From Boswellia sacra (lineage: Eukaryota; Streptophyta; Magnoliopsida; Sapindales; Burseraceae): a DNA stretch of 64,000 nt. Under the pieces are notes generated by a model. That model was not told the origin of the DNA. It saw nothing but the letters and a program-made list of their open reading frames with translations, and did not search any database. A program made the position numbers and the translations under genes. Location: positions 310,001 through 374,000 of the forward strand of contig SNVD02009890.1 of NCBI GenBank assembly GCA_013180625.2, read 5' to 3'. This document shows positions 1,809 through 63,174 of the stretch, one piece after another. Position 1 is the first letter of the stretch. Each line of letters opens with the position of its first letter.

Positions 1809-1817
1809 AAAAAAACA

Positions 1818-4800
1818 ATGAATACCGGTAGTTGTATTGGAATTTCTTCAATGAAACCTTGTTGTAGGATATTGATTGGTTACAGAATCTCATCAATTTT
1901 TGGAGCTTCTCATATCAAATCAAACCATTCAATTACATACAATTTGTCGAAATCACAATCTAACTCGAAGTCAGTTGTTCATGGTAGGAAAGATAATGTC
2001 AAGTGTCAAGTTATAGGTTACAATAAGTGTATAGTTGATCCGAATCGGAGGGCTTTGTATGTCTCCGATTCGAATTGGGATCAATCTATAGGTTTAGGTA
2101 AGAATAGGAGTAGTATTCGTGTCAAAAAGGATAGTAAACGGGGTATTTTAGTAATCCCCAATGTAGCATCGGATATTAGGAACCATTCAACATCGATTAA
2201 GAGTCATGTTAATGAGAAGGGATTTGAGAGGATTTACATTCAGGGTGCTTTGAATGTGAAGCCTTTAGTGATTGAAAGGATTGAAAATGGAAATGAAAAT
2301 GCTGTTAAAGAAGAAGATAATAAGGTGGACGTTAATGGCCCCAGTGTAAATTTAGATAATTTGAAACATTTGAATGAGAATGTTAAAGCTGAGAGAGGGG
2401 TGCCAAAGATTGAGGAGGAAGCGTGGAAGTTGCTTCGGGATGCGGTTGTCACTTACTGCGGAAATCCAGTTGGGACAGTTGCAGCTAATGATCCTGCAGA
2501 TAAGCAGCCGCTGAATTATGATCAAGTGTTCATTCGTGATTTTGTACCCTCGGCACTTGCCTTTTTGCTAAATGGGGAAGGGGAGATTGTTAAGAATTTT
2601 CTTCTTCACACATTGCAGTTACAGGTACTTTATTATCCAAATACCTTAATATTTTTCTACAATGCATTTTTAATTTCATTTCCTTCTTCTTAAAGTACAG
2701 TAAAGTAAAGTATAGGTGTTTTTGTTTGACGCTGGTCATTATTTGGATATGAATTGCACTGATACAATTAGGATCTAGAAGGCTGCCTTGTTTATAATGG
2801 TCTCACTTATAAGTTCAGCTATCAGCTAATTGATTAGATATGTGCATCTGATTTTGGCTAGATGCTCGTTGACTCTTGTAATTTGGCATTTTATGGATGT
2901 TCTGGATATTCTTTTCTGTGTTACTAGTAAAGAGGAGATTCTTTCTTTAACAAGGTAAAGTTTAGCCTTCTTTTCACTTATATTCAAGATCTGAATCAAT
3001 GACTTCAAATCCCAACACTCCTACATAATAAAAAATAGAGAGAAAGAAAAAATGAAAAATGAAATGCCATTAGCTTGCTTCTAGGCTAATTGATAAGGCT
3101 TCTTGGTGGAACTTTCTTCTATTTTTCAATAACTTGTCAGACTTCAGCTCTGTTTTCTTTGTCAGCTTTGGCAGGTTTTCAGATTCTAAATTAAATAAAA
3201 TGTTCTTTGTTTGATTGTCAGAGTTGGGAGAAGACTGTGGACTGTTATAGTCCTGGACAAGGGTTGATGCCAGCAAGTTTTAAAGTTAGAACTCTGCCTC
3301 TTGATGGAAGCGATGGAGCCTTTGAAGAAGTTCTAGATCCTGATTTTGGTGAATCAGCCATTGGTCGTGTTGCCCCTGTTGATTCTGGTAAGACACTGCA
3401 AAGTTCTGTTTTATGTAGCATTAGTAACTAGTAGTTTCTCTGTAGTTATTGTTGTTGGAAATCACTAGTTATATAATTTTCTGCAATCTGAATTTCTGTT
3501 CAGTCCCTTGCCAAATTAGAACACTGTAGTTTTTAGCACTTCCTTGACTCTTGAAATTTCTTCACATTTAACTGGATTTTGTTTTTTTAAATTAATATGT
3601 TGAGTGTTGACTACTTGGATAGGGCTGTGGTGGGTCATTTTGTTGAGAGCATATGGAAGGATCACAGGTGACTATGCATTGCAGGAGAGGGTTGATGTCC
3701 AGACAGGCATAAGGCTGATCCTAAATTTGTGTCTAACTGATGGATTTGATATGTTTCCATCTCTGTTAGTGACTGATGGTTCCTGCATGATTGATAGACG
3801 GATGGGTATCCATGGACACCCTCTTGAAATCCAAGTAAGAAAATATTCTCAATATAGGTCCAAGAAATGTATATTGTACACATGTATTGACTCAATATGG
3901 TTGTCGATTCTGTGCATTTATTGCATATTTCAAAAAAATTTATGTAGAGAAAATTGATATAAAGTTCTTTTTTTAATCTTTTTTTCCCCACTGATGATTA
4001 AACTCATGTTTTCTTGACAAATCTCATTTTGCAGGCCTTATTCTATTCTGCGTTACGGTGCTCCCGGGAGATGCTCATTGTCAATGATGTGACGAAGAAT
4101 CTGGTAGCTGCAATAAACAACCGACTTAGTGCACTTTCGTTTCATGTCAGAGAGTATTACTGGGTGGATATGAAGAAAATCAATGAGATCTACCGGTACA
4201 AAACAGAAGAATACTCTGCAGATGCCATCAATAAGTTCAATATCTATCCAGATCAAATTCCTTCATGGCTAGTAGATTGGATACCCAATGAAGGTGGCTA
4301 TCTGATTGGCAATCTTCAACCTGGTCATATGGATTTTAGGTTCTTCACACTTGGAAATCTTTGGTCCATTGTTTCTTCTTTGGGTACCCCTAAGCAGAAT
4401 GAGGGCATTCTGAATTTAATTGAGACTAAATGGGATGATATTGTTGCTCATATGCCTCTCAAGATCTGTTACCCTGCTTTGGAGTTTGAGGAATGGCGTA
4501 TAATCACTGGCAGTGACCCTAAGAACACGTGAGACTCTTTTTCAAAAACGAGACTATTCTGTTTTCATGTGAATAAAATTATTGATATTGCTCTATTTGT
4601 ATGCAGTCCATGGTCGTATCACAATGGTGGATCTTGGCCAACACTCCTATGGCAGGTGAGGATAATAGCCTTCAATGTAAAAGATTTTTCTGAATGTTGT
4701 TCTTGTGTTTGATTGTGGTATCGAGTTTGGGTTATTTAGAATTTATTACCGACCAATAAAAGTAGTGATGACTTATCATTTGGCCTGTCTAATTAAATTT

Positions 4801-5873: not shown

Positions 5874-8757
5874 TCAAGCACTTTCTTCATCTCCATACTT
5901 TCTGAAGAGGCCAAGACGGCTATCTCCAAGCCGTAGAGAATATGCAGCTTTCTTGTATTCGGCCCAAGTGAAAGCCCTATATAAAGAAGGCTCGTTGGCT
6001 GAGACCATTTCTGGAGGAGCGGCAATCCATGCATGAAGCGGTGGTGCCCCAAAATAGGCCATTGACATTCTTGACTTGTATGAGTTGCTCAGGGCTCTGT
6101 GCCTTACGCTCACAAACTTTCCATTTGTCATAGCCTTTAAAATGCAAGAAGGAAATACATATATTGTCAATCACTTCAGATTGTACTTGCAGAAGTTTAT
6201 ATAATATCAAATTACAAATCCACAGTTAATGTACTTATAAACTCCAGCTGGAGAATAGGTACGGGAAGCTAGTGCCTACCCGAAATACGGGAACAAATCT
6301 TGCAAAGTTCATTTTGAAAAATATCTGTATCTCGAGAAAAGCTAGGACCTGTCTACATCATTTCCTTTTCTATTGACAGACCATTCTGATATTTTTATAG
6401 GGTTTTTGAAAGCAAATGTAAATTCTATTTCCACGAAGCAAAAACAAAAATCTTGGATGTTGCCTTGCCTAGTTACTCAAAGACCCATAAATGCCAATAC
6501 ATGCGTAGCCAAACCAACTAACAAGGGACTTTTCAGTTCAATCTCTTAAACGTAAACACTGATATCAATTACTGAATTCACAGGCGCTCATTGGATAGAA
6601 ACTAATATGTGGGTGCCACAGTGTCATAAAAAAACAGAGCTGCAGCGGAAAATTTGCTGTAAGTGATTCCCAATACACATCAGTTGCCATCAATCTCAGT
6701 CCAATGACTCCAATCCAATTCACCTTTATTGATTGTATGATTACCACGAGAAATAGAGATAAAATAAAGGCTTGTATAGACCTACCTGTAACACGTCACC
6801 CACATTAACACAAAAGGTGGTTGGGTCAGGTGAAACCGGCATCCAGACACCTTCATCTAGAGAAATTTGCAAGCCACCCACATCGTTGGATCTCAAGATG
6901 GTGAGGATCTGAGGGTCAGAATGCTCTCCAAACCCAACCTTAGAGGGAGATGGAGATGTGTCCACGTTACCCTTGCAGAGCACAGGTGGATAGTGATTCA
7001 GCCTGAAAACTGAGTCATTATCAACGTCCCTGATGAGGCTACTAAACACTGATATGTCATGGACCCACAAGCCTTCTGCAATCAGATCCAAGATCTCACA
7101 TGCCAAGTCTCTAACTGCTTCTATGTAACCACTCACGGCAGACCTGTCATGTACACACACAGACACATAATCACTTATCACACGTCAAACAAGTAGCCGA
7201 GTAGGGTAGGTTAAACTCGCACTGTCTCTCTGTCAATGGCCACTCCTTTGCATTGCTTTTATCATTTTTTTTTTTGGTTTGGTTTGCTTCTTTTAGGAAG
7301 ATAAGTCATTTTTACAGTTCTCTATTTTTGGGTTAATTTTATCTCTACTTTGATTTGATTGATCCTTTCTTGATGTTTCTCTGTGATTGTCACAGTCCTG
7401 CTACTGCTACTACTACTCCTCCTGCTGCTACATTATTCTTTTCTCACAGTGTGGCTGGATACAGGCTCAGGCATGTGCTTCTGCTTGCTGGAATAGCGAG
7501 TGGGAACAAGTGCTTGTTCTGTGATAAAGATGGAAAGTGTCTTTGACATTTTTTATCCCACTTTCCACAATCACTTTAATCCATGCATCTACACTCCACG
7601 TGGCACTTGAATTAAAGTTTCAAATTATTTCTAATTCTAAAGCTCACGTGTATTTCAAACTAAATTCAATTCCTCTCAACATATATATATTTATAGCAAT
7701 TATAATCATGATCCTAAGTAGATGCGTCTTTTCTTTCTTATTTTCCTTTTGTTGATTTACTACCGAAAAAAAAAAGATCAATACCCTTTTATATATGTCA
7801 ACTTCTCTTTATCGAAACGTGCACCATGTTAAATGAATTTAGCACCGTGCACTGGATATTATGCAAACGAGCAATAAACTTAGACGTGCATAAACCCTAT
7901 AAAGTTTAAGAGCATAGATAGGTGCAGCTGAAAGCTATGAAATAAAATAAAATAAAACCCATTTCACGGATAGTTCCTAATACCGGGATTATAACTCATA
8001 AAACTAGACAAGTTACGCCAGTTGGCAAGTGGGAAGAACTTGTAAGCATGGTCCGATTATCTTCTACTCTTCTTTATTTCATTTAAATTAAAAAAAAAAT
8101 CCATATCATGCATGCATAAGACTAAGACTTATCAATATTATTGAATATTTCTAAAATTTATTTTGCCATAATATTATCCATGAATGCGAAGCATCATGTG
8201 GCCGACTGCTTGCCATTGTTACACTGAATATACACATAAAAACAAGCTCAAAACCTACCAATATATTGCCAACTTTTTTAGTGATTGAGAGAGAAGTTGT
8301 AGTTCTACATGCAACAATATTTTTAACACGTAGCAAGAAAGGTATAACATTAATTCGAGCTGTGTAAGTACCTGAATTTTGTCGGGTCATTAGAGATGGA
8401 TTTGGATCTTTGAGCAATAGAGAGAGGGTTGGTGTGAAGGAGAAGATATTCAACCTCTCCCACGTCACCATTGAACCCTATATTCTTGCAGCCATAACCG
8501 AAAGGATTGGCCGGGCCTGCTTGCAATTGTTGCTTCTCAGTGAGTGGTTTGGCAAAGAAGTTGAGACTCTCTTCCTCCATTTTTGAAATGACGTCGTCAG
8601 GGACACCATGGTTTATCACCTTGAAAAATCCATACTTTTCACAGGCTTTTACTATAAGCTCCGCCACCTCGGACCTCTCAGCTGAAAGGTCGATGATAGG
8701 AAGCTCAATGGATTGGATTTTCTCACTGCGGATAGGAGTTGGAGAGGCCAACACCAT
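5874..8757 (-). CDS. GA2ox: Gibberellin 2-beta-dioxygenase (2OG-Fe(II) oxygenase)
   Basis: Inactivates bioactive gibberellins and their precursors by 2-beta hydroxylation, using Fe(II) and 2-oxoglutarate in the cytosol. Three exons on the minus strand, 8757-8372, 7143-6786 and 6134-5874, join with GT-AG sites into 1005 bp, or 334 aa. The N-terminal DIOX_N block ([22 protein letters not shown]) is followed by the catalytic core. The Fe ligands are His203 and Asp205 in GFGEHSDPQ and His260 in [10 protein letters not shown]. Arg270 in [10 protein letters not shown] is the expected 2-oxoglutarate contact. The [18 protein letters not shown] block and the length match GA 2-oxidases better than GA 20- or 3-oxidases. 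Intron 1 is about 1.2 kb and intron 2 about 0.65 kb. The gene looks intact. I did not assign it to a numbered paralogue. Confidence 0.93.
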
Positions 8758-8920
8758 CTCTCTTAAAGAAATGAAACGAAACGAAACAAAACAAAGCTAG
8801 CTCAAGTGTTTGCTCCTTTATTTTCTTATGTAAGAAAGAGAAGAGAGAACGAGAGAGGAGACACCAAAGAAGAAGAACAAGAAGATATGAAAGCAGTGAA
8901 AAAACTAGTGCTTGTATGTG

Positions 8921-21916: not shown

Positions 21917-22762
21917 TTGTCATGTGAGAAGCTTAGATATAAGGCTAGGCTATTGGTTAAGGGTTTTATACAGCGTGAGAGAATTGATTATAATAATATA
22001 TTCTTTCCAATGCTGAGACAAACGTCAATAAGAGTTCTTCTATCACTTGTGACATGTTTTGATCTTGAGCTTGAGCAAATGGATGTCAACACTGCGTTCT
22101 TGCATGGTGAGTTAGAAAAGAATATCTACACGAGCCAGCTTGAGAGATTTGAACTTTTAGGTAAAAAAGATTGTGTTTGCTTGTTGAAAAAATCATTTTA
22201 TGGTTTGAAGTAAAGTCTAAGACAATGGTATCTCCGATTTGATAAATTCATAGTAAAGAAATGTTTATCAAAGAGTTCCTATGATAACTGCGTTTACTAT
22301 AGGGGAACTACATATCTTGACATGGTCTACTTGCTCTTATATATTGATGATATACTCATATCCAGTAAAGCAATCTCAAAAGTTCAAGACTTGAAAGAGT
22401 TGCTTCAAACTGAGTTTGATATGAGAGACTTAGGAAAGGCTAAGAGGATATTAGGAATGGACATTCACAGAGATAGAAACAAAGATATACCCTTTTTGTC
22501 TAAAAAAAACTATCTTAACAAAGTATTGCATTGGTTTTACATGAGTGGTGTAAAGACTATTAGTGTACTATTAGCAGCGCGTTTTACACTCTCGTTTGAG
22601 CTATGTCCTAAGACAAATGAGGAGAAACTTCAAATGGACAAGATTTTATATGCGAATGCAATAGAGAGTGTCATGTATTTGATGGTGTGCACTTATCCAG
22701 ATATTGCACAAACTATATTAGTTGTCAGTAAGTTTATGGTAAATCCAAGGAAAGTTCATTGA
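21917..22762 (+). pseudogene. Copia reverse transcriptase remnant
   Basis: Two open pieces hold the Copia RT domain: KARLLVKGFIQRERIDYNN, LEQMDVNTAFLHGELEKNIY and KKSFYGLK in the first, then LLLYIDDILISS (the YxDD catalytic motif) and MRDLGKAKRILGMDI in the second. A stop after the YGLK motif divides them. It belongs to the element at 18809-23935. Confidence 0.88.
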
Positions 22763-41126: not shown

Positions 41127-41666
41127 TTACCCTTCTAAATTCCTGCCGAAATTTCCCCCCGTCTGCAGCTTTGATTTGTTCACCTGCTTCCATTCACGAT
41201 CCTGGAACACCGATATGGGAAAGGACTTGGATAAACCAGCAGGAGTCTTAAACGTAATGGAGCCATGTGGAGAATTATCATTTACATAAATTTCACGTAA
41301 CGAAATCCAAATCAAAAACTCCTTTGCTTTGACACCCGTCAGGTTCCTGATCTTGTTCGGCTCAAAATAGGCTGTAACTTCAGTATCAAACAATACAATT
41401 ATGTTATCAAACTTGTGCTCTCTCCTTTGCTTGTGTTTAAGCCATACAAAGCCGATATCTTTCACGTACCCGCATTCTTCTATGTCTTGTAGAGTTAGTA
41501 GACCCACCGGCAAGCCAATGTCCTCTAACAACACCGTGAACTTCTCTCTGCAGGTTTCATCTCCGTGATAAACTTCAGCTTTGGCCTTCATCTCTTCCGT
41601 CACCAGAGGCATCTCTCTCGTCCTCTGTCTCCTTGATCCAGACGTCAGAATGCTTGATGTTAGCAT
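41127..41666 (-). CDS. DUF538 family protein, single exon
   Basis: A small plant-specific protein of the DUF538 family, whose molecular role is not firmly established. The frame is intronless, 179 aa from the first ATG. Family resemblance begins at Met19 (ATG at 41612), where the sequence reads MPLVTEEMKAKAEVYHGDET. It continues through GLPVGLLTLQDIEECGYVKD, GFVWLKHKQ, VTAYFEPNKIRNLTGVKAKE and ITFKTPAGLSKSFPISVFQ. The 18 residues before Met19 (Ser/Arg-rich) are not typical of the family, so translation may really start at 41612 and give 161 aa. A TA-rich element at 41747-41732 could serve as TATA box. The gene looks intact and stands at the edge of the transposon-dense half. Confidence 0.9.
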   Translation of the reverse strand: MLTSSILTSGSRRQRTREMPLVTEEMKAKAEVYHGDETCREKFTVLLEDIGLPVGLLTLQDIEECGYVKDIGFVWLKHKQRREHKFDNIIVLFDTEVTAYFEPNKIRNLTGVKAKEFLIWISLREIYVNDNSPHGSITFKTPAGLSKSFPISVFQDREWKQVNKSKLQTGGNFGRNLEG

Positions 41667-41731
41667 AACGTGAGGTTCTTATAATTATAAATCTTTTTTT
41701 TTTTTTCAAAGGAACTGGGGAATATGAATGG

Positions 41732-45169: not shown

Positions 45170-46326
45170 TCAAGCTGGCATGAAAATATAACTCATGGCA
45201 AGCTTGCTCACTAGGTTCTCATACTGTGCCTTAGGAAGTCCTTTGTTGAGTATCTCTGCTACTTGGCTGGTAGTAGGAATGTAGGACATGCATATTACAC
45301 CATTGTCAATATTCTCCTTGATGAAATGTTTGTCCACTTCTACATGTTTTGTTCTGTCATGTAGAATAGGATTGTGAGCTATGGAGATTGCAGCCTTATT
45401 ATCACAATAGACTTTAATAGGTGCAGGCATAGGACCCTTCAATTCTTCTATAAGTCTTTTGATCTAAAGCCATGTGCTACAGAGTGAAATTATGCTTCTG
45501 CACTACTCGTCACCACAACACTTTGTTTTTTGCTTCTCCAGGTGACTAAGTTCCCTCCTACAAAGGTGCAATAACCTGAGGTAGATCTTTTATCACTTAG
45601 TTGCCTGCTCAATCTGCATCGGTGTAGGCTTCTATTTGAAGATGACATATTTCTTTACAGGAGTCCTTTTCTTAGAGACCCTTTGAGGTATCTTAGAATT
45701 CTGAACACAGCTTCGAAATGAGTAGTTCCTGGTGAGTGCATGAACTAGCTTATAACACTCACTGTGAAAGCTATATCAGGTCTTGTATGTGCTAAATAGA
45801 TTAGTCTTCCAACCAATCTTTGATAGCGTTTCAGATCCTTCACATCTTCTACCTCCGCTGCCTTTAGTTTCACATTTGGGTCAATTGGAGTTTCTGCAGT
45901 TTTACAACCTGTCATTCCTGTTTCCTTGAGTAAATCAAGGATATATTTGCATTGGTTGATAAAGATACCCTTCTTGGACCTTGCAAACTCCATCTCGAGG
46001 AAATACTTTAGTTTTCCCAAATCCTTGATGTCAAATTCGATCTCAAGCCTATTCTTTAAGCTATTGATCTCAGGAAGGTTATCACCAGTCATGATAATGT
46101 CATCTACATACATAATCAGAATGTCAAATTTTTCTTCAATGGAATGCTTGAAGAACATAGTATGATCGGCTTGACTTTGTGAGAAGCCATGTCTTCTTAC
46201 AGCATCTCTAAATCATTCAAACCAGGCTCTCGGCGACTGCTTTAGACCATAAAGAGATTTTCTTAATCTGCATACCTTGTCTCTTCCAAAGTTTTCTTTA
46301 AATCTGGGAGGCAAGTCCATGTATAC
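45170..46326 (-). pseudogene. Copia RT and RNase H remnant
   Basis: Minus-strand reading gives the RT block [19 protein letters not shown], then a stop, then ILIMYVDDIIMTGDN (YVDD catalytic motif), FDIKDLGKLKYFLEMEFA and QRLVGRLIYLAHTRPDIAFT. The RNase H piece follows with VYCDNKAAISIAHNP and HDRTKHVEVDKHFIKE. Stops divide the pieces. It resembles the Ale/Retrofit type. Confidence 0.88.
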
Positions 46327-46868
46327 TATCACGCCCTAAAATCTATTATTTAGAGACTTTAAGGGTGATTAATTAAGAAAAATAATAAAAAGACATCATT
46401 AATATATCCTCTTTTTTTTTTTTTTCAAGATAATTTTCTAATTTACACATATATTTATACATACCACATGAATCCATTACAACATCTGGCTATTTGTTCA
46501 AAATAACTTTACATACACTGGTCATTAAACTTAGTACATAGGTTGATAATTACATAATAAAATTTCCTATCACGATTTAGGTTAAGTCAAAACATTTTCC
46601 AAAACCATCGCATGTATGTAAACGCCCAGACCCCTCATGAAAGCTCTGGAACACCACTAGTACGAATATCTTTTTGTGTACCTGTGGAGGGAGGGGGTAA
46701 GCATATAGCCTAGTAGGAAAAATTCTAACATTGTATTAAATCACAAGCATTCAAATAGTTACTTAATTACATAGTTACACAACCAATTATAATAAGTCAA
46801 ACAATCATTCCCATTCACACATCAAGGTATCACTTATTCACTTGACAATCAAAATTTTTCATCTAATG

Positions 46869-47042
46869 TTTCCCTTAGACCCATATCCAAACGACCCATC
46901 CAAGGTCTAACATTTCAAATTTATATTCGTGTTCCCCTTGGATCCATATCCAAAACGGCCCATCCAAGGTCCAACACTAAGAATTTCATATCCGCATTCT
47001 CCTTGGATCCGTATTCAAAACGGCCTATCCAAGATCCAATGC
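46869..47042. repeat. Short tandem array in the Gypsy LTR
   Basis: Three imperfect units of about 60 bp share CCTTGGATCCATATCCAAA and CGGCCCATCCAAGGTC. The paired CCTTGGAT/ATCCAAGG words give each unit hairpin potential. Confidence 0.75.
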
Positions 47043-47306: not shown

Positions 47307-48040
47307 ATACAGTTTTTATGAAAAATCCAGACCTGTCACTAAACTAATGAAAATTTCAGGATTTCAAGCTCAAATTAGAAAAGTCACCAAAAAGTGTACA
47401 AAAATGGTTTTTAGGTGATTCAACTTGGAAATGAAAGTTTATGGAGTCTATTATAAGTTAAAAATACTAATTTTACAGAATTAACATCTAATGAATACAG
47501 ATTTGTGAAAATATTTAAGCCTCTCAGATGAACAATGCAATTTCCAGATTTCAACTTCCACTTTCAAAAATTCACCAAAATTTCATTTCCAATTCAAATT
47601 TAGTGAAACCAGTGCTGAATTAAAGCTTGTCATGTCTACTTTTCAAAAAAAAAAAATGGATTTCTCAAAACTAGTCTCATAGGATACAGATTTGCAAAAA
47701 TGTTCAGGTCTGTCGGATGAACAGTACCATTTCCAGATTTCAACCTTAAATTTCAAAAATTCACAAAAATTTCATTTTAAATCCAAATTTGGTGAAACTA
47801 GTGATAAATTAAAGCTTGACATGTCTACTTTTCAAAACAGAAATTGGATTTCTCAAAACTAGTCTCACAAGATACAGATTTGCAAAAATGTTCAAGTCTA
47901 CCGGATAAACAGTACCATTTCCATATTTCAAGCTCCAATTTCAAAAATTTACCAAAATTTCATTTTAAATCCAAATTTAATGAAATTAGTACCTATTTAA
48001 AGCTTCATATATCTATTTTCCTAAACAAAAGAGAAATTGT
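47307..48040. repeat. ~188-bp tandem array in the Gypsy LTR
   Basis: Related blocks starting ATACAG(A)TTT occur at 47307, 47495, 47684 and 47872, spaced 188-189 bp. The last two are the most alike (GATACAGATTTGCAAAAATG). Confidence 0.8.
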
Positions 48041-48806: not shown

Positions 48807-49721
48807 CTATGACTCTAACTCCCATGTGGCCTCTTCAATGCCATGATGCTTCCACAAGACCTTGACTAACGGAATGGTCTTGCCACGTAGGACTTGTGCT
48901 ATTGTGTCCAAAACTTGAATAGGAACCTCTTCATATGAAACATCTTGTTGAATATCCAACTCACTCCAATCCAGTACATGTGTTGGGTGAGGCTTATACT
49001 TCCTTAGCATCGATACATGAAATGTGTTATGAATTCCCGATAATCGTGGTGGCAATGCTAGCTCATAAGCTACTTCGCCAACCCGTCTTAGAATTTCAAA
49101 TGGGCCAATGTAACGTGGAGCTAGTTTACCTTTTTGTCCAAAACGCATCAAGCCTTTACGTGGAGACACTTTTAAAAACACATGGTCACCCACTTTGAAT
49201 TCTAACAGTCGTCTCCTTTTGTCAGTATAGCTTTTCTGTCGACTAAGAGCTGTAAGTAAACGTTGGCGTATCAACTTCACTTTTTCTGTTGTCTCTCGTA
49301 GAAGCTCGGGTTCTGATAAGGTAGTTTCTCCCACTTCTATCCAACATAAAGGGGACCTACACGGCCTACTATAGAGTGCCTCAAAAGGTGCCATTCCAAT
49401 ACTTGACTAGTAGCTGTTGTTGTATGCAAATTCTACAAGTGGTAGATGATCCTCCTAATTACCTTGAAAATCCATCACATAAGCCCTCAACATATCTGCC
49501 AAAATTTAAATAGTGTGCTCTGATTGACCATCAGTTTGAGGATAAAAAGCTGTACTAAATAACAATTGTGTACCCATAGTTCTTTAAAGGCTTTGCCAAA
49601 ATTGAGCTGTAAATCTAGGATCTCTATCTGATACCACTGAAACTAAAACTCCATGCAATCTCACAATTTTTTTTAATGTATAGCCGACTCAAAATATCCA
49701 CCAAATCGGTTGTACGGATAG
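48807..49721 (-). pseudogene. Gypsy integrase C-terminus and chromodomain
   Basis: The open part (49394-48807) reads from MAPFEALYSRPCRSPLCWIE through HVFLKVSPRKGLMRFGQKGK and RYIGPFEILRRVGEVAYELA to the chromodomain tail PLVKVLWKHHGIEEATWELE. The upstream integrase core (49721-49395) is recognisable but crossed by several stops. The chromodomain would steer integration to marked chromatin. Confidence 0.88.
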
Positions 49722-54068: not shown

Positions 54069-55490
54069 TGATAGGTGTCTATTTATGTATTACTTTTATA
54101 TCAATTCGTCCATGTTTCTTTGCTATATTCCTTGGTATTTTTATGTTTTTGTGTGGTTTTGTTGTTTGTAGGAGTTTTGGAGCAACTTGCACAAAAATGG
54201 AGTAAAACCCTTCATTTTCACCTCTGCTAGTCAGTGATCTTCTCGGATTTAATTGTATTGATATACAATGAACCCGATGACATATTATATACCGTTGGAA
54301 AGCTCTCGAAGTCTATTTTCTGGAGAAATTTACGGTTTATAAATCCATTCAGTGTACCAAAAGTTGTAATCAAAACAGTGTGAGATGTATAGAAATATAA
54401 TTCCACAAGCCACTGTAGCATGTATAATACGGGGCACTGTAGCAAGTCACTGTAGCAGAGTATTTAAACACATTTTAGGGTTTTATTTTCATAACTTGAA
54501 GAGGGGAAAACGTGGGAGGAGGCTGCATTTCTGGATTTCTCTCATCCCTTGGAGTTCTTGAAGGAGAAAGAAGATTTTGAAAGAGGAGGAACTACAATTC
54601 CAAGAAGATTCATCTACAAAGAAGATTTTCAAAGAATTTGCTAAGTTCTTTCTTTCCTTTTCAATTCTGGAATTTCTCTGTATTGTATTTGTTATTCTGA
54701 TTGAATATGTGTAACTAAATCTGAATTGGTTGAGGGTGATTTCAAAGCCCTTGATATGGATTTTGTGAGTTGATTGTGTAAGAAATTGTTATCCAATTCT
54801 CTAATTGAAGTTGCTTGTATTTTCCCATATCTAATGCTTATGATTGCTTACTGATTGTATTTGGAATGGCCAACTGAATATAATCTGTTGTTGTCTATTG
54901 CTAGATTAGAAATCTTGATCCGTAATTGTCATGAATTTCCAATCATTAGTAGCAAAATTGTGATCAGAGATTGCAATTGGAAAATACAACCTAGGTTAAA
55001 TAATCCGAACTTGTGTGATTATTGCTTAGATCAACCTATCTTTCTCATCGTAATGCTTCTATTGAATTAAACTTAGAGAGCTTGTTCTAGGTTGTTTAAT
55101 GGATAGAGATTAAATAAAGAGCTTGTTTTATTTAACAACAAAGTAAGGAAGATTGGGATAACAGAGCTTGTTGTTATCTACGGTTGATAACTTCAATGCT
55201 GTAATTGGATTACAATTCTATGTTAATTCACAAATTCATATCTTGTGGCAGAGAAAGAACCCTTAACCAAGTGTCTCTCATTGATCTTTCATTCAAATTA
55301 ACTTCTGTTTTGTTATTCTTAATTTGCATTCTTATTTCATTTAGTTAATCATTCAACAAAACCCCCCTGTTTAGTTTATTGTTGCTGGAAAATAACAAAT
55401 TCAATTAGAATCAATCCTCGTGGGAACGATATCTTACTTATCACTTTATTACTTGTGCGACTAGTATACTTGCTAGTTTCGAACGCATCA
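54069..55490 (+). repeat. 5' LTR of the cargo-bearing Gypsy element
   Basis: 1422 bp, from TGATAGGTGTC to AACGCATCA. It differs from the 3' LTR by scattered substitutions and small indels only. Confidence 0.93.
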
Positions 55491-55495
55491 AGTTT

Positions 55496-55514
55496 TGGCG
55501 CCGTTGCCGGGGAT
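55496..55514 (+). other. Primer-binding site, tRNA-Asp type
   Basis: TGGCGCCGTTGCCGGGGAT five bases after the LTR is the primer site known from Athila/Tat-lineage elements and is complementary to the tRNA-Asp 3' end. Confidence 0.9.
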
Positions 55515-55602
55515 TGATTTTCTAATCGATTTGTTATTTTGTTTTCATTGTTGATTCATATTTTCTTTGTTTTTCTTTTCTGATTGTTTGTGTTTAGACA
55601 AC

Positions 55603-56631
55603 ATGGCAGTAAACTTCTATCAATTCAGTAGCGGATTTGAGCCACAAGTACCATGGAGAGTAACTGAGGTAAGCACTCCGAACATTGAACAACAACTTTC
55701 TGAGCTAACCTCTCTTGTGGAAAACATGGCTGTAGGAGATATGCAAAAATCTTATGAATGTGGGATATATTCTACGATGGAGCATCCAATCGACATGTAT
55801 CCAACTTTACAAGAAGAATATATGGAACAAGCCAATGCCATGGGTGGATTTCCAGGACAAACGAGGCAATGGTATGATCCTTTCTCTAGCACTTACAATG
55901 CTGGATGGGAAGATCAACATAATTTCAGTTACTGGAATCATCAACCAATCACTCCAAATGTTATACCAAATCGGCCACAAAGTTTCAATCAACCTAGAGT
56001 GCAGCAACCATTTCAAATGCAACCACCACCAATGCCGCATCCAGCACCGCAACCAGCTTCGCAAAACTCAGGTATTTCTCTCGAAGATATTATGAATGCA
56101 CTTGCCACTAACACAATGCAATTCCAGCAGGAAACTGGGGCAAGTATCCAAAACCTGGCAAATCAAATAGGACAATTGGCTACTAGCATGAGCAAATTCG
56201 AGGGCCAAGACTCAGAAAAATTATCTTCCCAAGCGGTGATCAATCCAGGAGAGACTGTTAGTGCGATAACTTCACAAGGTGGAGAGCAATTAGATATCTT
56301 GCCAAGGAAATCACAAACTGATGAAGGAGATGACACCACTTCCACCACGAACATAACATTGACTTCTCAGGTAAATCCTACAACCCTCATTCCTTCATAT
56401 GTTTCTCCTCCACCTTTTCCTAGTAGATTTGTAAAATCGAAGAAGAAGGAACAAGAACGGGAAATCTTGGAAACTTTTCGCAAGATCGAGGTAAATATAC
56501 CACTTCTGGATGCTATCAAGCAATTACCTCGTTATGCAAATTTTCTCAAGGAGTTATGCACCAACAAGAGAAAGTGGAAAGGAAATGAGAAGGTAAGTGT
56601 GGGGGAAAATGTTTTCAAAAAACTGTTTTAA
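55603..56631 (+). CDS. Shortened Tat/Athila-type Gag
   Basis: 342 aa from the ATG at 55603. The C-terminal gag region is present: GFPGQTRQWYDPFSSTYNAG, a Pro/Gln/Asn-rich stretch, a helical LEDIMNALATNTMQFQQETG segment, and VKSKKKEQEREILETFRKIE followed by LLDAIKQLPRYANFLKELC, the usual lead-in to protease. The N-terminal capsid domain expected upstream is missing: only about 75 residues precede the C-terminal region. So this is an internally deleted Gag, which would have to assemble, if at all, with help from an intact relative. The frame closes before protease. Confidence 0.82.
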   Translation: MAVNFYQFSSGFEPQVPWRVTEVSTPNIEQQLSELTSLVENMAVGDMQKSYECGIYSTMEHPIDMYPTLQEEYMEQANAMGGFPGQTRQWYDPFSSTYNAGWEDQHNFSYWNHQPITPNVIPNRPQSFNQPRVQQPFQMQPPPMPHPAPQPASQNSGISLEDIMNALATNTMQFQQETGASIQNLANQIGQLATSMSKFEGQDSEKLSSQAVINPGETVSAITSQGGEQLDILPRKSQTDEGDDTTSTTNITLTSQVNPTTLIPSYVSPPPFPSRFVKSKKKEQEREILETFRKIEVNIPLLDAIKQLPRYANFLKELCTNKRKWKGNEKVSVGENVFKKLF

Positions 56632-56636
56632 CAAAG

Positions 56637-57504
56637 AAAATTACCTCCGAAATACAAAGAAAAATGCCCAAGTAACGTTCACCATTACATGCACCATTGG
56701 TAAAACTAGGTTTGAAAGAGCTACGTTAGATTTAGAAGCATTTATTAACATCATGCCATATTCTATTTATGCTTTTTTTAAATCTTGGACCATTTGCGAA
56801 AACTGATATTACCATTCAACTTACCAAAAGTGTTGTGGAAGATGTGCTTGTGCAGGTGAATCAATTGGTTTTTCCAGCAAACTTCTATGTCCTTGAAATA
56901 GAGGATGAGACATCTCCTAATCCAACACCGATTCTTTTAGGGAGACCATTCTCGAAAACTGCTAGAAACACGATTGATGATCATTATGGCACTTTCACCA
57001 TGGAGTTTGATGGCAAAGTGATCCGTTTCAGTATTTTCGAGGCAATGAGTGAGCACATAGGGACAGAAAATTCCAAAGAACCAAGAAGTTTGATACAAGT
57101 GTCCAAAGAAATGGAGGAAGCTATGGCATGCTTAGATGAGACTATAGCTATAATCACAAACAGGTATGATGTTTCGTACATTGAATTGCCTTTATCTAAT
57201 GAGAAACTTCTTCCTTCTGTGATGAAAGCCAATACCTTAGAGCTTAAGCTACTTCCAGATTATTTGAGGCATGTGTTTTTGGGTGACAAAGATCCTTTGC
57301 TAGTTACAATAGAAATGGGCCTTGCACCACTACAAGAAGAGAAACGCGTCCAAGTACTTAGAGTTCACAAAACAACTATAAAGTGGACGATTGCTAACAT
57401 CTAAGGCCCAGCCATATGCTTGCACCATTTCTTGTTCGAAGAAGGATCCAAGCCCACTAGAGAAGCACAGCGGAGATTGGATCCTCCCAGGATGGAACCA
57501 ACGT
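56637..57504 (+). pseudogene. Protease and start of RT, mutated and truncated
   Basis: Two frames carry the retropepsin-like domain. The block around CTIGKTRFERATLDLEAFIN has Glu where the active-site Gly of the D-x-G motif belongs. After a shift near 56790 come VEDVLVQVNQLVFPANFYVL, TPILLGRPFSKTARNTIDD and the linker into RT (VHKTTIKWTIANI). A stop at 57402-57404 is followed in frame by the first RT residues (CLHHFLFEEGSKPTREAQRR). The sequence then jumps at about 57500 to the end-of-pol signature. Confidence 0.85.
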
Positions 57505-57552
57505 CGGGCTGAGGACGTTAAACCAAGCGCTTATTGGGAGGCAACCCAATGT
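57500..57552 (+). other. Deletion junction to the end of pol
   Basis: The sequence GACGTTAAACCAAGCGCTTA, followed by TTGGGAGGCAACCCAATG, is the stretch normally found at the very end of pol in Tat/Athila elements. Here it follows the first 40-odd residues of RT directly, marking a deletion of RT, RNase H and integrase. Confidence 0.75.
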
Positions 57553-58042
57553 TTTTGAAAAATAAATAAAAGAAAAGAAACGAAAAATAAAATAAGGTAA
57601 TAATGATCGATTTTTGTGTCTCGAGGAGATTCCTTTCGTAGGCCATCAAATTGATCAGGTTTTATCTCTCTTTGACATCTGTCTTATTTGTCTTTATTTG
57701 TTTTTACTTGTTTTTGATTTTTGTTTGTTATTGTGTTGTTATCTCTTTTATGTGTTTTTAGTTTCGTTTCTGCTCTTTTCTTTTCCTTCCTTTTGTTTAA
57801 TTTGATTATTTCGTACTTCGAATTCATTTGTGCAACAGCTTGAGAAACATCCAAAGGGGAGCTGAAACCATTGCCCGAAGGTTTGAAACGTGCATATCTG
57901 GGAGAAGAACAAACTCAATCGCATTATCGGTAATATCTCTCCTTTTCTTCTCTTCAATGGATGTCGATATCTTTCTATCGAACCTTCGTAAATATTTCCC
58001 TTCACTTCCTCAAAATGCTGTGTTTAAAATTTATAAAGTACG

Positions 58043-58314
58043 ATGACTAGACTTTGGACATTGATGCTCTTAAATGTGCCTGCTGATATCCGATGGCTTA
58101 TCGAAGCCAAGGTGAGATTCTCCGGTGAGCCGGACATTAATCTCGCAAAATACATGCCTGGTCTAGGAAAGAGCTACTACGCCAAGAGGCGAAGAGCGAA
58201 GAGGTTACAAGTATGCTATAAATGTGCTAGATAGAATTGTAACCAGACTTGTCGTTCATTAGGTTTTGCGTCCAGGAATAGAGAAGATAAACTTTCATTA
58301 TTAAGAATGGTTTG
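58043..58314 (+). pseudogene. ORF like the Cys-rich nucleic-acid-binding protein of carla-like plant viruses, with internal stop
   Basis: A 63-codon frame opens at 58043 and stops at 58232. Its last third has a Gly-x-Ser-x-Tyr-Ala run, then a basic cluster (KRRRAK) and a Cys-x2-Cys pair. This is the arrangement of basic region plus zinc finger in the 3'-proximal NABP of Carlavirus-type plant viruses. Beyond the stop the same frame supplies a second Cys pair (Cys-x3-Cys) and a Gly-Phe-containing tail, and closes at 58312-58314. So one stop codon splits what looks like a four-Cys finger. The ATG overlaps the stop of an upstream frame as ATGA. In viruses such proteins bind nucleic acid and can suppress RNA silencing. 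Here the role is unknown, the frame is broken, and the identification rests on motif pattern alone. Confidence 0.45.
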
Positions 58315-58732
58315 AGTAATGAGTCGCTGGATAATGTTTTGTTAACTCTCGAGTCACATTCTTGTGGACTTGTTCAGCGTGAATTGCTTAATCTATGGAC
58401 CCAATTTCGTGATGAATTGCAGTGTTATAGTCTAGGGAATCTGACTAAAAACGACCATGTTTGCCAGTTTATAAAAAAACTGGATGGGAAGCAAATCCCC
58501 GACTCATAGAAGGCGTTTCAGCCGTTACTGGACGTAAAACCAGAGGAAGATGTGAGCCACAATCACAACTACTTGTATATTTGAATGTGTGTTGTTATTG
58601 TCAAATTTTTTTCTTGTTTCGATTGATCTGATTATCAATGTTGTTTTTGTGTTTTGTTGTTTGTTGATTTTGTTTGTTTTAATTTCAAGTTTTCTTTTTG
58701 ACAAACCATATGACTACCCTATGGCATAAGTA

Positions 58733-58995
58733 CACGTGGGAGACAAGTGTGGAGGTTTTGTCAACCTCCACCGAAAGTGTATCTCTATTTTTTATGCTTC
58801 ACGTGGGAGACAAGTGTGGGGTTTTTGTCAACCCCCACCGAAAGTGTATCTCCATTTTCCATGCTTCACGTGGGAGACAAGTGTGTAGGTTTTGTCAAAC
58901 CTCGCCGACAGCATATCTCATTTTTTCAAATCTTGGGGCGATAAATCTGCATCGAGCAACCCCCACCGAAAGTATGTCCCCATGTTTCAAAATTT
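58733..58995 (+). repeat. Array of 67-bp repeats with hairpin potential
   Basis: Units at 58733-58799, 58800-58866 and 58867-58935, with a decayed fourth to about 58995. Each has CACGTGGGAGACAAGTGTG, an inverted repeat with TTGTC in the loop, and ACCGAAAGTGTATCTC or a variant. Unit 1 pairs GGAGGTT with AACCTCC, unit 2 GGGGTT with AACCCC, and unit 3 AGGTTT with AAACCT, so stems survive base changes. Confidence 0.88.
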
Positions 58996-59116
58996 GAGAG
59001 TTTTATGGGTGTATATATACATTCTGCATATTTTCATATGTCATTCCATAACCTGTCTTGCAATTGAAAAGCATAATATCTAACGTGTCTTACACAAGAT
59101 TAGAGCACTTGTAGAA

Positions 59117-59766
59117 ATGGAGAAAACACCAATTCACCGATTCCGCAATATATGCGTATTTTGCGGATCGCAATTTGGTAAAGATGGAGAGTTTACCACA
59201 GCAGCTCTTGATCTTGATAGGACATTAGCTGCGAGGGGTATTAATTTGATTTATGGAGGGGGTAGTCTTGGGTTAATGGGGTGTGTGTCAACATCTGCAA
59301 CCCTAGGCAGGAGCAAAGTCCTTGGCATTATCCCTAAACCTTTAGCTGTGCAAGATTTCGTAGGCAACACATTCGGGGAAGAGTTACAGGTCTCTAGCAT
59401 GCATGAGCGTATTGCACATATGGTTGTTAAGTCCGATGCATTTATAGCTTGCCTGGTGGTTATGGTACATTAGAGGAGATATTTCAAATCACCTCTTGGG
59501 CACAGCTAAACATCCATCGGAAACCCATTGGTTTGTTAAATGTTAATAATTTTTTTGATGGTTTGTTTTCCTTTCTTGATCAAGCTGTAGAAAAAAATTT
59601 CATCTCACCGTCAGCAAGGCAAATGCTGGTTACAGCTTCAACGGCAGGGGAGTTAATTGACAAACTACAAGAATTCGTCTATTTGCCTGATCCAACAATG
59701 GCTCAGATAAATTGGTTTGGAGAAGACAACAAAAGGCGTCAACTGGATTTAACCCTCCATCTGTAA
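59117..59766 (+). pseudogene. LOG: Intronless LOG-type cytokinin riboside monophosphate phosphoribohydrolase in a retroelement, frameshifted
   Basis: LOG enzymes release active cytokinin free bases from cytokinin riboside 5'-monophosphates in the cytosol. The frame from 59117 shows FRNICVFCGSQFGKDG, the nucleotide-binding INLIYGGGSLGLMG, VLGIIPKPL and SSMHERIAHM. After a shift at about 59450 it continues with PGGYGTLEEIFQITSWAQLN, KPIGLLNV and AINTERNAL-like C-terminal helices ending DLTLHL; together about 215 codons, the normal LOG length. The shift equals a loss of two bases just before the PGGYGTLEE motif. Catalytic Arg98 is kept, but the next residue, normally Lys, is Ile. Plant LOG genes have several introns; this copy has none, which points to capture through RNA. 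The break may be real or an assembly error. The only part I am unsure of is whether any product is made. Confidence 0.9.
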
Positions 59767-60660
59767 TCTCTACTTGCTGGTTTGCTGAGTTTTTGTTTGC
59801 TTTCTTTTTAGTGTGTTTATTTGAGATTTTTCATGTCATTTTTTTTGAGTTTTTTCAGGTTATTTCTTTCGTCCCAGGTAATATTTTCTAATCTCGATTT
59901 TTAGAGTGGTGGCTTAAAAAGTTTAATTCCTCTTGAAACGCATTCTGGATCTCTTCAATCCATAATGGCTGAATAAGGAGGCTAACTTCTAACTTTTTAG
60001 ACCCATTCTAACTGACTTGTTTTTGTTTGCTGGCTTGTTGGACTTTGTTATTTTATGAGTAAGTTTAGTTTTATGTAATTTAGAGTTGTTATGTGTTTTA
60101 GTCTTTATCAGTTTCGATTCAAAAAAAATTGTGGAAAAAACTTGAGAATGGCAGAATATGGGGTTTCTTTAACCCTTGAAACGCATTCTCTCTAAATAAA
60201 TCTGTAGTTTGTTTATTTCATGTTATTTGAAGTGTCTTGTTTCTTGTTTTGTTCCTTCATAATAAAGGTATATAGGCTGAAAACCTTAAGTCTGCGGGCT
60301 ACTGGTCCTAAGGATTGTTGAAATATACAATCTTGACTCAGGTGTAACAACGCCACGTACCTCTTTTCTTGCTTTTTGTGGGTCGATGATAAGATAATGA
60401 TTGAATTAAGAATAACTCTTGGAAAATGATAAATGATGCATGGATCTGTGTGCTTGAAATGTTTATTGGTTTTCACTTTGCTTTTGATTCCTTGCTCAAC
60501 ATTGAGCACTGAGCTATTATCACTGAGTTATTTGTTCACTTAGAGAAAGTTTATGTAATTCAAATATTTCTTCAGATTTCAATGAATTCTAGAACTTGTT
60601 TGATGGTCACTCGAGGTGAAATCCTAGACTGTGCAACATTGGGGAAATGATTTAGGCCAT
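59767..60660 (+). other. Non-coding cargo or tail downstream of LOG
   Basis: T-rich sequence in which GAAACGCATTCT recurs near 59936 and 60178. No coding region is recognisable. Its origin, LOG 3'UTR or element tail, is unclear. Confidence 0.5.
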
Positions 60661-60692
60661 CTTTGGACCGTTTGAGCCTTAATAGCCAACCT

Positions 60693-60711
60693 AGATGTGT
60701 ATAAGAGACAG
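60693..60711 (+). other. Tn5/Nextera mosaic-end sequence, likely assembly artefact
   Basis: AGATGTGTATAAGAGACAG is a perfect 19-base copy of the Tn5 mosaic end used in Nextera libraries. The 15-mer GAGCCTTAATAGCCA lies on both sides (60674-60688 and 60711-60725). The two bases before it are CT, as in the mate-pair junction adapter. A natural plant origin is very unlikely. Confidence 0.93.
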
Positions 60712-61764
60712 AGCCTTAATAGCCACCCTTGACTGAAATTGATCCCTAGTTACCCCCTTTGAGCCTTTGTAAGCCTTTTTCTTTGTTAACTCACTAAAAG
60801 ATTTCCTAACCTTAAATGAATTTGTTCCAAACAGTTTATCCCTTACCTATAAGCATGTAGATCATTCATAATTAAATTCTGAGCTATGTTTTGGTTTTGG
60901 GAAGTTAGAGGAGGTTGGGATGTGTCATGAGCAATGCAAGTGAGTCCTATTGTGTTTGTAAAAAGAACAAAAAAAGCCAATCTGTACTTATCGTCCACGT
61001 ACTTACACATTGAGGACAATGTGTTGTTTAAGTGTGGGGAGGGGAAGTGTAATAAAAAAAAGAAAAAAAAGAAAAAAAAGAACAAAAGAAGAAGAATAAG
61101 AGATCTATACCCTTAAGTGTTCTTAAAAAGAATGAAACAACAAATTGTGGGGGTGTAGTTTTCTTTTGTTTTCTGCAAAAAAAAAAAAAGAGATTGAGTG
61201 TTCTAAATAAGTTTGGGGGAGTAACCTGGTGAATTGAAATGAAGTTGTGTTATAGGGTTGAGCTCTACATAGTCTTGAATGATTTATGTGTTTGTGGGTG
61301 ATTTGAGCCAAATTATTATCCTTTATCATACCTTCACCCAAGCCCAACGTTACAAGCTTAATAAAGTCCTACTTGATCCTTGGTGTTGTACATGTCTACA
61401 TTAGTGGAGAGTGACTTGAAAAGCAGGCCTATGGAGTTCATTTATACACACATCTTTACTATTAAATATGATTCATTTTTAAGCATAAACTCATACGGGT
61501 TACAAGTGATTAGGTGAGAATGGCTCTACACACACACACTTGAGGAATTGAAGTGAAGCGAAACTAATCTTTTCGGATAAAATTGTTGATCAAGTGCATT
61601 ATTTTGAAGTTTTCCTTGGGTTATAATTAAGTACAATCTTTGAGGCCTATTTGCAGATGAAGCATTTGTGTGTTTTAATTTTTTGTTGATTATATTTCGG
61701 TTTAGTTTTATTTTATATTGTCGTAGTTGCTTGAGGACTAGCAAAGTCTAAGTGTGGGGGAATT
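60712..61764 (+). other. 3' tail of the Gypsy element up to the polypurine tract
   Basis: Non-coding, with the words typical of Tat/Athila tails (CACATTGAGGACAATGTG followed by TTTAAGTGTGGGGAGG near 61007-61045). It also has an A-rich run (61050-61090) and ends in the polypurine tract GTGTGGGGGAATTT at 61752-61764. Confidence 0.7.
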
Positions 61765-63174
61765 TGATAGGTGTCTATTTATGTATTACTTTTATATCAA
61801 TTCGTCCATGTTTCTTTGCTAAATTCCTTGGTATTTTTATGTTTTTGTGTGGTTTTGATGTTTGTAGGAGTTTTGGAGCAACTTGCACAAAATGGAGTAA
61901 AACCCTTCATTTTCACCTCTGCTAGTCAACCATCTTCTCGGATTTAATTGTATTGATATACAATGAACCCGATGACGTATCATATACCGTTGAAAAGTTC
62001 TCGAAGTCTACTTTTTGGAGAAATTTACGGTTTATAAATCCATTCAGTGTACCAAAAGTTGTAATCAAAACAGTGTGAGAAGTATAGAAATGTAATTCCA
62101 CAAATCACTGTAGCATGTATAATACGGGACACTGTAGCAGGTTACTGTAGCAGAGTATTTAAACACATTTTAGTGTTTTATTTTCATAACTTGAAGAGGG
62201 GAGAACGTGGTGGAGGCTGAAGCTCTGGAATTCTTTCATCTCTTGGAGTTCTTGAAGGAGAAAGGAAGCTTGGAAAGAGGAAGAACTACAATCCAAAGAG
62301 AATTACATCAAATTTGCTAAGTTTTTCCCTTCCCTTTCATTTTCTGGAATGTCTCCATGTTGTATTGTATTTACCACGTTCTTAAACATGTGTAACTGAA
62401 TCTGAATTGGTTGAGGGTGATTTCAAAGCCCATGATATGGTTTTTGTAAGTTGATTGTGTAAGAAATTGTTATCCAATTCTCTAATTGAAGTTGCTTGTA
62501 TTCTCTCATATTTAATGCTTATGATTGCTTGCTGATTGTATTTGAGTGGCCAACTGAATATAATCTGGTTTGATTTATTGCTAGACTAGAAATCTTGATC
62601 CGTAATTGTCTTGAATTTCTAATCATTAGTAGCAAAATTGTGATCAGAGATTACAATTGGAGAATTTAACCTAAGTTAAATAATCCGAGCTTGTGTGTTT
62701 ATTGCTTAGATCAACCTATCTTTCTTATCATAATGCATCAATTGAATTAAACTCAGAGAGCTTGTTCTAGGTTGTTTAATGGATAGAGATTAAATAAAGA
62801 GCTTGTTTTATTTAACAACAAAGTAAGGAAAGATTGGGGTAATAGAGCTTGTTATTATCTACGGTTGATAACTTCAATGCTGTAATTAGATGACAATTCT
62901 ACAATTAATTCGCAAATCCATATCTTGTGGTAGAGAAGGATCCCTTAACCAGCTTTCTCCCATTGATTTTTCATTCAAATTTACTTTCTGTTTTGTTATT
63001 CTTTACTTGCATTCTTATTTCATTTAGTAAAGCATTCAACAAAAATCCCCCCCTGTTTAGTTTATTGTTGCTGGAAATAACAAATTCAATTAGAATCAAT
63101 CCTCGTGGGAACGTATCTTACTTATCACTTTATTACTTGTGCGACTAGTATACTTGCTAGTTTCGAACGCATCA
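61765..63174 (+). repeat. 3' LTR of the cargo-bearing Gypsy element
   Basis: 1410 bp, matching 54069-55490 from TGATAGGTGTC to AACGCATCA. Confidence 0.93.

What the first reader, a model, noticed from the sequence alone, without database searches (positions are those of the whole stretch)
54069..63174. A Gypsy retrotransposon carrying a cytokinin-activating enzyme gene and a viral NABP-like ORF as cargo
The two LTRs, tRNA-Asp primer site and polypurine tract define one element. Its pol is nearly all deleted, yet 4 kb between pol and the 3' LTR holds an intronless LOG-type gene, an ORF resembling a plant-virus Cys-rich nucleic-acid-binding protein and a hairpin array. Extra ORFs downstream of pol are known in plant Tat-lineage elements, but a hormone-activating enzyme with a virus-like factor is a combination I do not recognise. 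If the family amplified, it could spread a LOG source under LTR control.
Basis: partly seen in the sequence, partly recalled or inferred. Interest (0 to 1): 0.92.

Follow-up and report, generated by a model that had tools for sequence, protein, structure and literature searches.

The report
Retrotransposon with hormone and virus-like genes
A worn-out plant jumping gene carries broken copies of two borrowed genes, one for a plant-hormone-activating enzyme and one resembling a plant-virus protein that can block RNA silencing, and intact relatives of both are found in other flowering plants.

Summary
The features are real. LTRs 54069-55490 and 61765-63174 (92.1% identical), a tRNA-Asp-type primer site, a polypurine tract, gag/protease-like remnants and almost no pol enclose a LOG-like and a carlavirus-NABP-like gene. 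This copy is dead: both cargo genes are broken, there is no target-site duplication, and an exact Tn5 adapter (60693-60711) sits between LOG and the 3' LTR. LOG domains in plant Gypsy elements are already in print (PMC9289625, citing Steinbauerova 2011). I found no report of the NABP-like gene in such elements. It has a large family: 896 protein clusters at E<=10 (120 listed, all E<=1.3e-37), with named members in Populus, Acer, Xanthoceras, Rhamnella and Orobanche; 20 of 24 tested match Pfam Viral_NABP. The LOGs form one group beside Arabidopsis LOGs; all 19 full-length members end in LxLxL, 18 after a basic patch (EAR-repressor-like). I read this as a silencing-suppressor plus LOG accessory module of a eudicot Athila-like lineage; function and linkage are not shown.

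The parts
54069..55490 (+). 5' LTR, TG...CA, 1422 bp
55496..55513 (+). primer binding site TGGCGCCGTTGCCGGGGA (tRNA-Asp type, tRNA recalled), 5 nt after the LTR
   Evidence: sequence read
55603..56631 (+). gag-like ORF (342 codons from ATG); no Retrotrans_gag Pfam match, so probably truncated or diverged; label from recalled Athila-type motifs
56736..57404 (+). protease-like remnant at the start of pol (label recalled; no Pfam match)
57405..57560 (+). pol deletion scar: recalled RT-start-like peptide runs into a recalled end-of-pol motif (GGGAGGCAACCCA)
   Evidence: motif names recalled
57957..58043 (+). NABP-like gene, N-terminal piece (21/27 identical to P0129)
58037..58234 (+). NABP-like gene, core with basic patch KRRRAKRL and first CxxC; ends at a premature stop
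58235..58312 (+). NABP-like gene, second half of the finger (16/24 identical to P0139)
58291..58509 (+). NABP-like gene, C-terminal piece in another frame (50/69 identical to P0137)
58733..58926 (+). 67-bp tandem array, ~2.9 copies, palindromic, first two copies with a PPT-like AAGTGTGGRG
59117..59473 (+). LOG-like gene, first part from ATG; homology lost where the frame shifts near 59446
59446..59766 (+). LOG-like gene, second part with PGGYGTLEE and C-terminal NKRRQLDLTLHL
60693..60711 (+). exact Tn5/Nextera mosaic-end sequence: assembly artefact inside the element
   Evidence: identification recalled
61750..61764 (+). polypurine tract AAGTGTGGGGGAATT
61765..63174 (+). 3' LTR, 1410 bp

Best explanation
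A decayed copy of a eudicot Athila-like Ty3/gypsy family whose 3' accessory region holds two genes: a betaflexivirus-NABP-like zinc-finger protein and a LOG enzyme captured from the plant. Shown: the window's structure and decay; full-length, conserved relatives of both proteins in other eudicots; one LOG group next to two plant LOGs; an invariant LxLxL tail on the full-length members of that group. Inferred: that the relatives mostly lie in LTR elements; that both genes form one module; that the NABP-like protein, like Chrysanthemum virus B p12, damps small-RNA silencing and/or acts in the nucleus; that LOG makes active cytokinin and/or, through its basic plus EAR-like tail, acts in the nucleus as a repressor-recruiting nucleotide-binding protein. 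Together they would favour expression of the element in dividing or meristem cells.
For: LTR/PBS/PPT anatomy. Pfam NABP hits above cut-off for the window core; at E<=0.001, Viral_NABP matches 20 and Carla_C4 19 of 24 aligned family members. 896 clusters at E<=10, a listed cluster with 566 members. CX2CX4CX3C in 77 of 87 held members of 140 aa or more. LOG group of 23 rows with support 99/98 beside two Arabidopsis LOGs. PGGxGTxxE in 18 of 19 full-length LOGs; R98 and E121 (catalytic by recall) invariant in 18 of 18 aligned; LOG fold with best PDB hit E 5.6e-22. LxLxL near the C-terminus in 19 of 19 full-length LOGs of the group and 0 of the 78 other full-length listed hits, on a tail predicted disordered (pLDDT <50 for residues 196-217) whose last six residues are more conserved than random picks from that stretch (p 0.0024). 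LOG P0013 and NABP P0139 both list a longest contig of 8723 bp, both with source ENA. CVB p12 is a nuclear activator and silencing suppressor (PMC7588395 abstract).
Against: No second DNA copy was read: the own-genome search did not complete (13 tries), viral-contig scans found no NABP relative and only four LOG-like loci of 38-44% identity that I did not examine. The shared contig length could be coincidence (my rough estimate ~1%). No activity is tested. Of the first eight NABP hits, three miss the Pfam cut-offs (P0006 below, P0007 and P0008 no match). The NABP model is poor (pLDDT 59.8) and no viral fold match reached E<=0.001. The finger spacing is CX2CX4CX3C, whereas viral NABPs as I recall them have CX2CX12CX4C. 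The 78 LOG controls without the tail are unnamed or bear bacterial names; ordinary plant LOG tails were not available, apart from two alignments that end before the tail. The tree tool warned that long branches meet between the bacterial and the LOG group, and only two ordinary plant LOGs were in the tree.
Confidence: 0.6

Rival explanations
1. Two independent captures: the NABP-like ORF is the general accessory gene of the lineage, LOG a separate later addition, with no joint function.
For: NABP clusters outnumber LOG-group clusters in the listings, although the two searches differ in sensitivity. The window order is NABP, then a repeat array, then LOG.
Against: One full-length LOG and one full-length NABP list the same 8723-bp contig length; both genes occur in the window copy.
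Confidence: 0.3
2. Assembly or recombination chimera: the block from LOG or NABP to the 3' LTR was joined to another element's 5' half, by unequal recombination or by the assembler.
For: No target-site duplication (3 of 5 bases differ, while LTR divergence predicts about 0.4); the pol deletion; the Tn5 adapter at 60693-60711.
Against: The same 14 bases on both sides of the adapter suggest one locus with an unremoved adapter. Relatives of both cargo genes exist in other plants, and LOG in Gypsy consensuses is published.
Confidence: 0.2
3. The NABP resemblance is a short basic-plus-CxxC convergence, not descent shared with viral NABPs.
For: The finger spacing differs from what I recall for viruses; no significant fold match; Pfam scores are modest where they pass (21.3-36.6 bits), and 3 of the first 8 relatives do not pass.
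Against: Two Pfam models pass their cut-offs for the window core, and the Viral_NABP match spans 86 profile positions in P0139 and 90 in P0004. 11 of 25 weak BFVD matches are named proteins of viruses that I recall as betaflexiviruses, nine of them called RNA silencing suppressor.
Confidence: 0.3
4. LOG cargo is a passenger without selection, a retrocopy carried along by the element.
For: The window copy is broken, and several Diplodiscus relatives are short fragments.
Against: 18 of 19 full-length relatives keep the PGGxGTxxE motif and 19 of 19 keep the tail.
Confidence: 0.12

Closest known systems
Plant Ty3/gypsy elements with a LOG/YgdH extra domain (Citrus, Populus trichocarpa; PMC9289625, citing Steinbauerova 2011)
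   Same: LOG-type domain inside Gypsy LTR retrotransposons of eudicots
   Different: A NABP-like gene and a C-terminal LxLxL tail are not mentioned in the sections read; its full domain figure and supplement were not seen
Athila / OTA lineage of Ty3/gypsy
   Same: tRNA-Asp-type PBS, long non-coding 3' region, extra ORFs between pol and the 3' LTR
   Different: No RT or integrase left to place it by phylogeny; no Athila ORF-1 Pfam match in the ORFs scanned
Carlavirus/betaflexivirus NABP (cysteine-rich silencing suppressor, e.g. CVB p12)
   Same: Pfam Carla_C4 and Viral_NABP matches; basic patch followed by a Cys finger
   Different: Up to 182 aa with a long conserved C-terminal part; CX2CX4CX3C spacing; encoded in plant DNA
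Endogenous betaflexivirus replicase-like sequence of cucumber (CsFRLS1, PMC3136472, passages read)
   Same: Betaflexivirus-related sequence in a plant genome, next to a retrotransposon-like sequence
   Different: Replicase fragment, not an accessory ORF inside LTRs, not described as a repeat family in the passages read
Plant LONELY GUY (LOG) phosphoribohydrolases
   Same: Fold, PGGxGTxxE, neighbouring position in the tree
   Different: Separate group on a long stem, single-ORF gene calls on short contigs, C-terminal basic patch plus LxLxL
Phalaenopsis Gypsy elements with AlkB demethylase (PMC9289625)
   Same: Captured host-like gene that may counter host control
   Different: Different enzyme, orchid lineage, activity shown in vitro

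Membership tests
LTR retrotransposon (Ty3/gypsy) | paired direct LTRs with TG...CA, PBS and PPT | tested here: met
LTR retrotransposon (Ty3/gypsy) | 5-bp target-site duplication | tested here: not met
   GCCAT vs TGTAT; older or recombined copies can lack it
LTR retrotransposon (Ty3/gypsy) | gag-pol with RT upstream of integrase | tested here: not met
   no RT or integrase match in the eight ORFs scanned in the element; pol is deleted in this copy
Athila lineage | RT/INT phylogeny | not testable with these tools
   no RT or INT found in the copy; no other copy fetched
LOG phosphoribohydrolase | homology and PGGxGTxxE motif | tested here: met
   window PGGYGTLEE; 18 of 19 relatives; TIGR00730 matches 18 of 18
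LOG phosphoribohydrolase | intact reading frame in the window | tested here: not met
   two frames
LOG phosphoribohydrolase | NCBIfam equivalog CtkRMPhLog cut-off (300 bits) | tested here: not met
   P0014 124.4 bits; all 18 match at E<=0.001; the model serves bacterial and archaeal annotation
LOG phosphoribohydrolase | cytokinin riboside monophosphate hydrolysis | not testable with these tools
   needs an enzyme assay
Betaflexivirus NABP | Pfam Carla_C4 / Viral_NABP above gathering score | tested here: met
   window core above both; 5 of 8 first relatives above both; E<=0.001 in 19 and 20 of 24
Betaflexivirus NABP | viral finger spacing CX2CX12CX4C (recalled) | tested here: not met
   CX2CX4CX3C
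Betaflexivirus NABP | silencing suppression | not testable with these tools
   needs an assay
EAR repression motif | LxLxL short motif (recalled) | tested here: met
   19 of 19 full-length LOGs of the group; binding to a co-repressor not testable

The most novel reading that the evidence does not exclude
A widespread eudicot Ty3/gypsy lineage keeps a two-gene counter-defence and host-reprogramming module: a protein sharing ancestry with RNA-virus NABP silencing suppressors, and a LOG enzyme refitted with a nuclear, EAR-type repressor tail. Retrotransposons and RNA viruses would thus share a suppressor gene, in one direction or the other.
Probability: 0.3. Interest if true: 0.87.

Novelty: new variant of a known kind. 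Interest (0 to 1): 0.62.

Why it matters
If the NABP-like family is a retrotransposon gene, plant transposons encode a relative of RNA-virus silencing suppressors, which would make transposon counter-defence against small RNAs directly testable and pose the question of which side captured the gene. The LOG group with an invariant LxLxL tail suggests a hormone enzyme reshaped for a nuclear role. This particular copy is only a fossil.

Tried and rejected
Rejected: that this copy is a working LOG source (frameshift). Rejected: that LOG in a Gypsy element is unprecedented (PMC9289625). Not used as evidence: the NABP fold model (pLDDT 59.8), except that its weak viral matches are rich in betaflexivirus proteins. 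Led nowhere: LTR search in phage records; tblastn of the NABP core in phage records; viral-contig scans with NABP (none) and LOG (four loci at 38-44% identity, not examined); genome-contig scan with LOG (569 relatives, 80 kept, bacterial by title, not used); Rfam (none); PDB search with NABP P0001 (nothing below E 0.14). Print searches. No listed paper was seen to describe a carlavirus-type NABP in a plant LTR element; one search found none of the four Pfam names in a fitting paper (two unrelated glyoxalase papers). Searches listed only part of what they found (7 of 8, 10 of 2,614, 12 of 49), the library is open-licence only, and the figure and supplement of PMC9289625 that list all extra domains were not seen.
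Full report
What is there. By its gene content the window is plant DNA: it holds alkaline/neutral invertase and 2OG-dioxygenase exons and Copia and Gypsy remnants; the host is not known. The element runs 54069-63174. Its LTRs (1422 and 1410 bp) start TGATAGGTGT and end CGAACGCATCA; 1288 of 1399 ungapped sites agree, 71 transitions, 40 transversions, K2P 0.084, or about 3.2 My at 1.3e-8 and 6.0 My at 7e-9 per site and year (rates assumed). A tRNA-Asp-type PBS (recalled tRNA) begins five bases after the 5' LTR, and AAGTGTGGGGGAATT precedes the 3' LTR. Flanks GCCAT and TGTAT are no target duplication; with this LTR divergence only about 0.4 of 5 bases should differ, so recombination between copies or misassembly must be considered, and then the LTR age is not an insertion age.

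Coding remains. A gag-like ORF (55603-56631) and a protease-like ORF (56736-57404) have no Pfam match at a useful E-value; their names rest on recalled motifs. Pol is gone: the start of an RT-like peptide runs within about 150 bases into a recalled end-of-pol motif. No RT hit was found in the eight ORFs scanned.

NABP-like gene. Pieces lie at 57957-58043, 58037-58231, 58235-58312 and 58291-58506. The core passes both Carla_C4 and Viral_NABP cut-offs. A search with it found 8 proteins at E<=1; 5 of these 8 pass both Pfam cut-offs, P0006 falls below and P0007 and P0008 do not match. A profile of five of these plus the window core found 896 clusters at E<=10 among 7992 scored candidates; the 120 listed all have E<=1.3e-37. 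Named sources are Populus x canadensis, P. alba, Xanthoceras sorbifolium, Acer yangbiense, Rhamnella rubrinervis and Orobanche gracilis; Rhamnella is a rosid and Orobanche an asterid, the others are rosids by recall. Large clusters (566 members in one) point to a repeat family; that these repeats are LTR elements is inferred from the window alone. Of 124 proteins held, 39 are exactly 182 aa, which seems also to be the longest that the search admitted (1.75 times its longest row, my reckoning), so longer members would not be seen; the window's C-terminal piece stops at the same place as these. CX2CX4CX3C occurs in 96 of 124, and in 77 of 87 with 140 aa or more. Of 24 near full-length members aligned (chosen by me from the list), Viral_NABP matches 20 and Carla_C4 19 at E<=0.001. 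The structure model is poor (pLDDT 59.8); against BFVD nothing reaches E<=0.001, but 11 of the 25 weak matches are named proteins of viruses that I recall as betaflexiviruses, nine of them called RNA silencing suppressor.

LOG-like gene. The two pieces match Arabidopsis LOG-type structures (E 3e-28 and 7e-29). The first piece found 250 proteins, 120 listed. The best 30 (P0009-P0038) include 19 of full length (200-230 aa); several named ones bear differently numbered chromosome names of Diplodiscus trichospermus (now Pityranthe, Malvaceae), some of them fragments, and one is from Melia azedarach. A tree of 37 rows puts the window piece, the 19 and three Diplodiscus fragments in one group (99/98) next to Arabidopsis LOG3 and LOG8 (87/65), with 12 bacterial-type LOGs apart (100/100). 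Only two ordinary plant LOGs were at hand, the label TE for this group was mine, the root is a midpoint, and the tool warned of long branches meeting. All 19 end in LxLxL, 18 of them after a stretch with three or more K/R within five residues, against 0 of the 78 other full-length hits listed, which are unnamed or bear bacterial names. The fold is LOG (best PDB match 2a33, E 5.6e-22); residues 196-217 are predicted disordered, yet the last six are less variable than random picks from that stretch (p 0.0024). The resemblance to NLS plus EAR motif is recalled knowledge and untested. NCBIfam TIGR00730 matches 18 of 18, while P0014 stays below the CtkRMPhLog equivalog cut-off.

Linkage. LOG P0013 and NABP P0139, both full length, each list a longest contig of 8723 bp with source ENA. 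By hand I counted 22 NABP clusters (list) and 5 LOG clusters (P0009-P0038) with contigs of 3-12 kb, so a chance match is about 1%. Matches among short contigs (905, 977, 1389 bp) also occur, between different sources, so this is a hint and not proof.

Artefact. The exact mosaic end of Tn5 libraries sits at 60693-60711 with the same 14 bases on both sides. It does not touch LOG or NABP, but the stretch linking LOG to the 3' LTR was assembled through it.

Prior work. PMC9289625 (abstract, sections 12 and 17 and passages read) reports the YgdH/LOG domain in Gypsy consensuses of two Citrus species and, without its filter, Populus trichocarpa, citing Steinbauerova 2011 (not held; I recall two Athila-like elements with LOGL4-like ORFs). 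PMC7264820 (passages), PMC6317226 (passages and section 9), PMC3136472 (passages) and PMC6338049 (passages) do not describe an NABP-like ORF in plant LTR elements in what I read; PMC3136472 reports a betaflexivirus replicase-like sequence in cucumber. PMC7588395 (abstract and opening text) states that CVB p12 activates transcription in the nucleus and suppresses silencing in the cytoplasm.

Verdict. An ordinary dead insertion, but of an unusual family. The LOG cargo is known; the virus-NABP-like accessory gene and the LxLxL tail of the LOG group are, as far as I could search, undescribed.

Noticed in passing
window 60693-60711: Exact Tn5/Nextera mosaic-end adapter sequence in the assembly, flanked on both sides by AGCCTTAATAGCCA.
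   Followed up: yes
window 58733-58926: 67-bp tandem array, ~2.9 copies, palindromic; its first two copies contain the PPT-like AAGTGTGGRG that also recurs at 56595, 61030, 61209 (as AAGTTTGGGG) and 61750.
   Followed up: partly
window 1803-4532: Alkaline/neutral invertase exons (Glyco_hydro_100), + strand.
   Followed up: partly
window 6741-8796: 2OG-dioxygenase exons on the - strand, gibberellin 2-oxidase-like by recall.
   Followed up: partly
window 41127-41678: DUF538 protein ORF, - strand.
   Followed up: no
window 22214-22762 and 45745-46212: Two Copia reverse transcriptase (RVT_2) remnants.
   Followed up: no
window 47495-48030 and 46867-47039: 188-bp x2.8 and 65-bp x2.7 tandem arrays near a Gypsy (Tf2-1-like SH3) remnant at 48807-49406.
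   Followed up: no
P0017, P0022: Two LOG-group proteins with extended lysine-rich linkers before the LxLxL tail.
   Followed up: no
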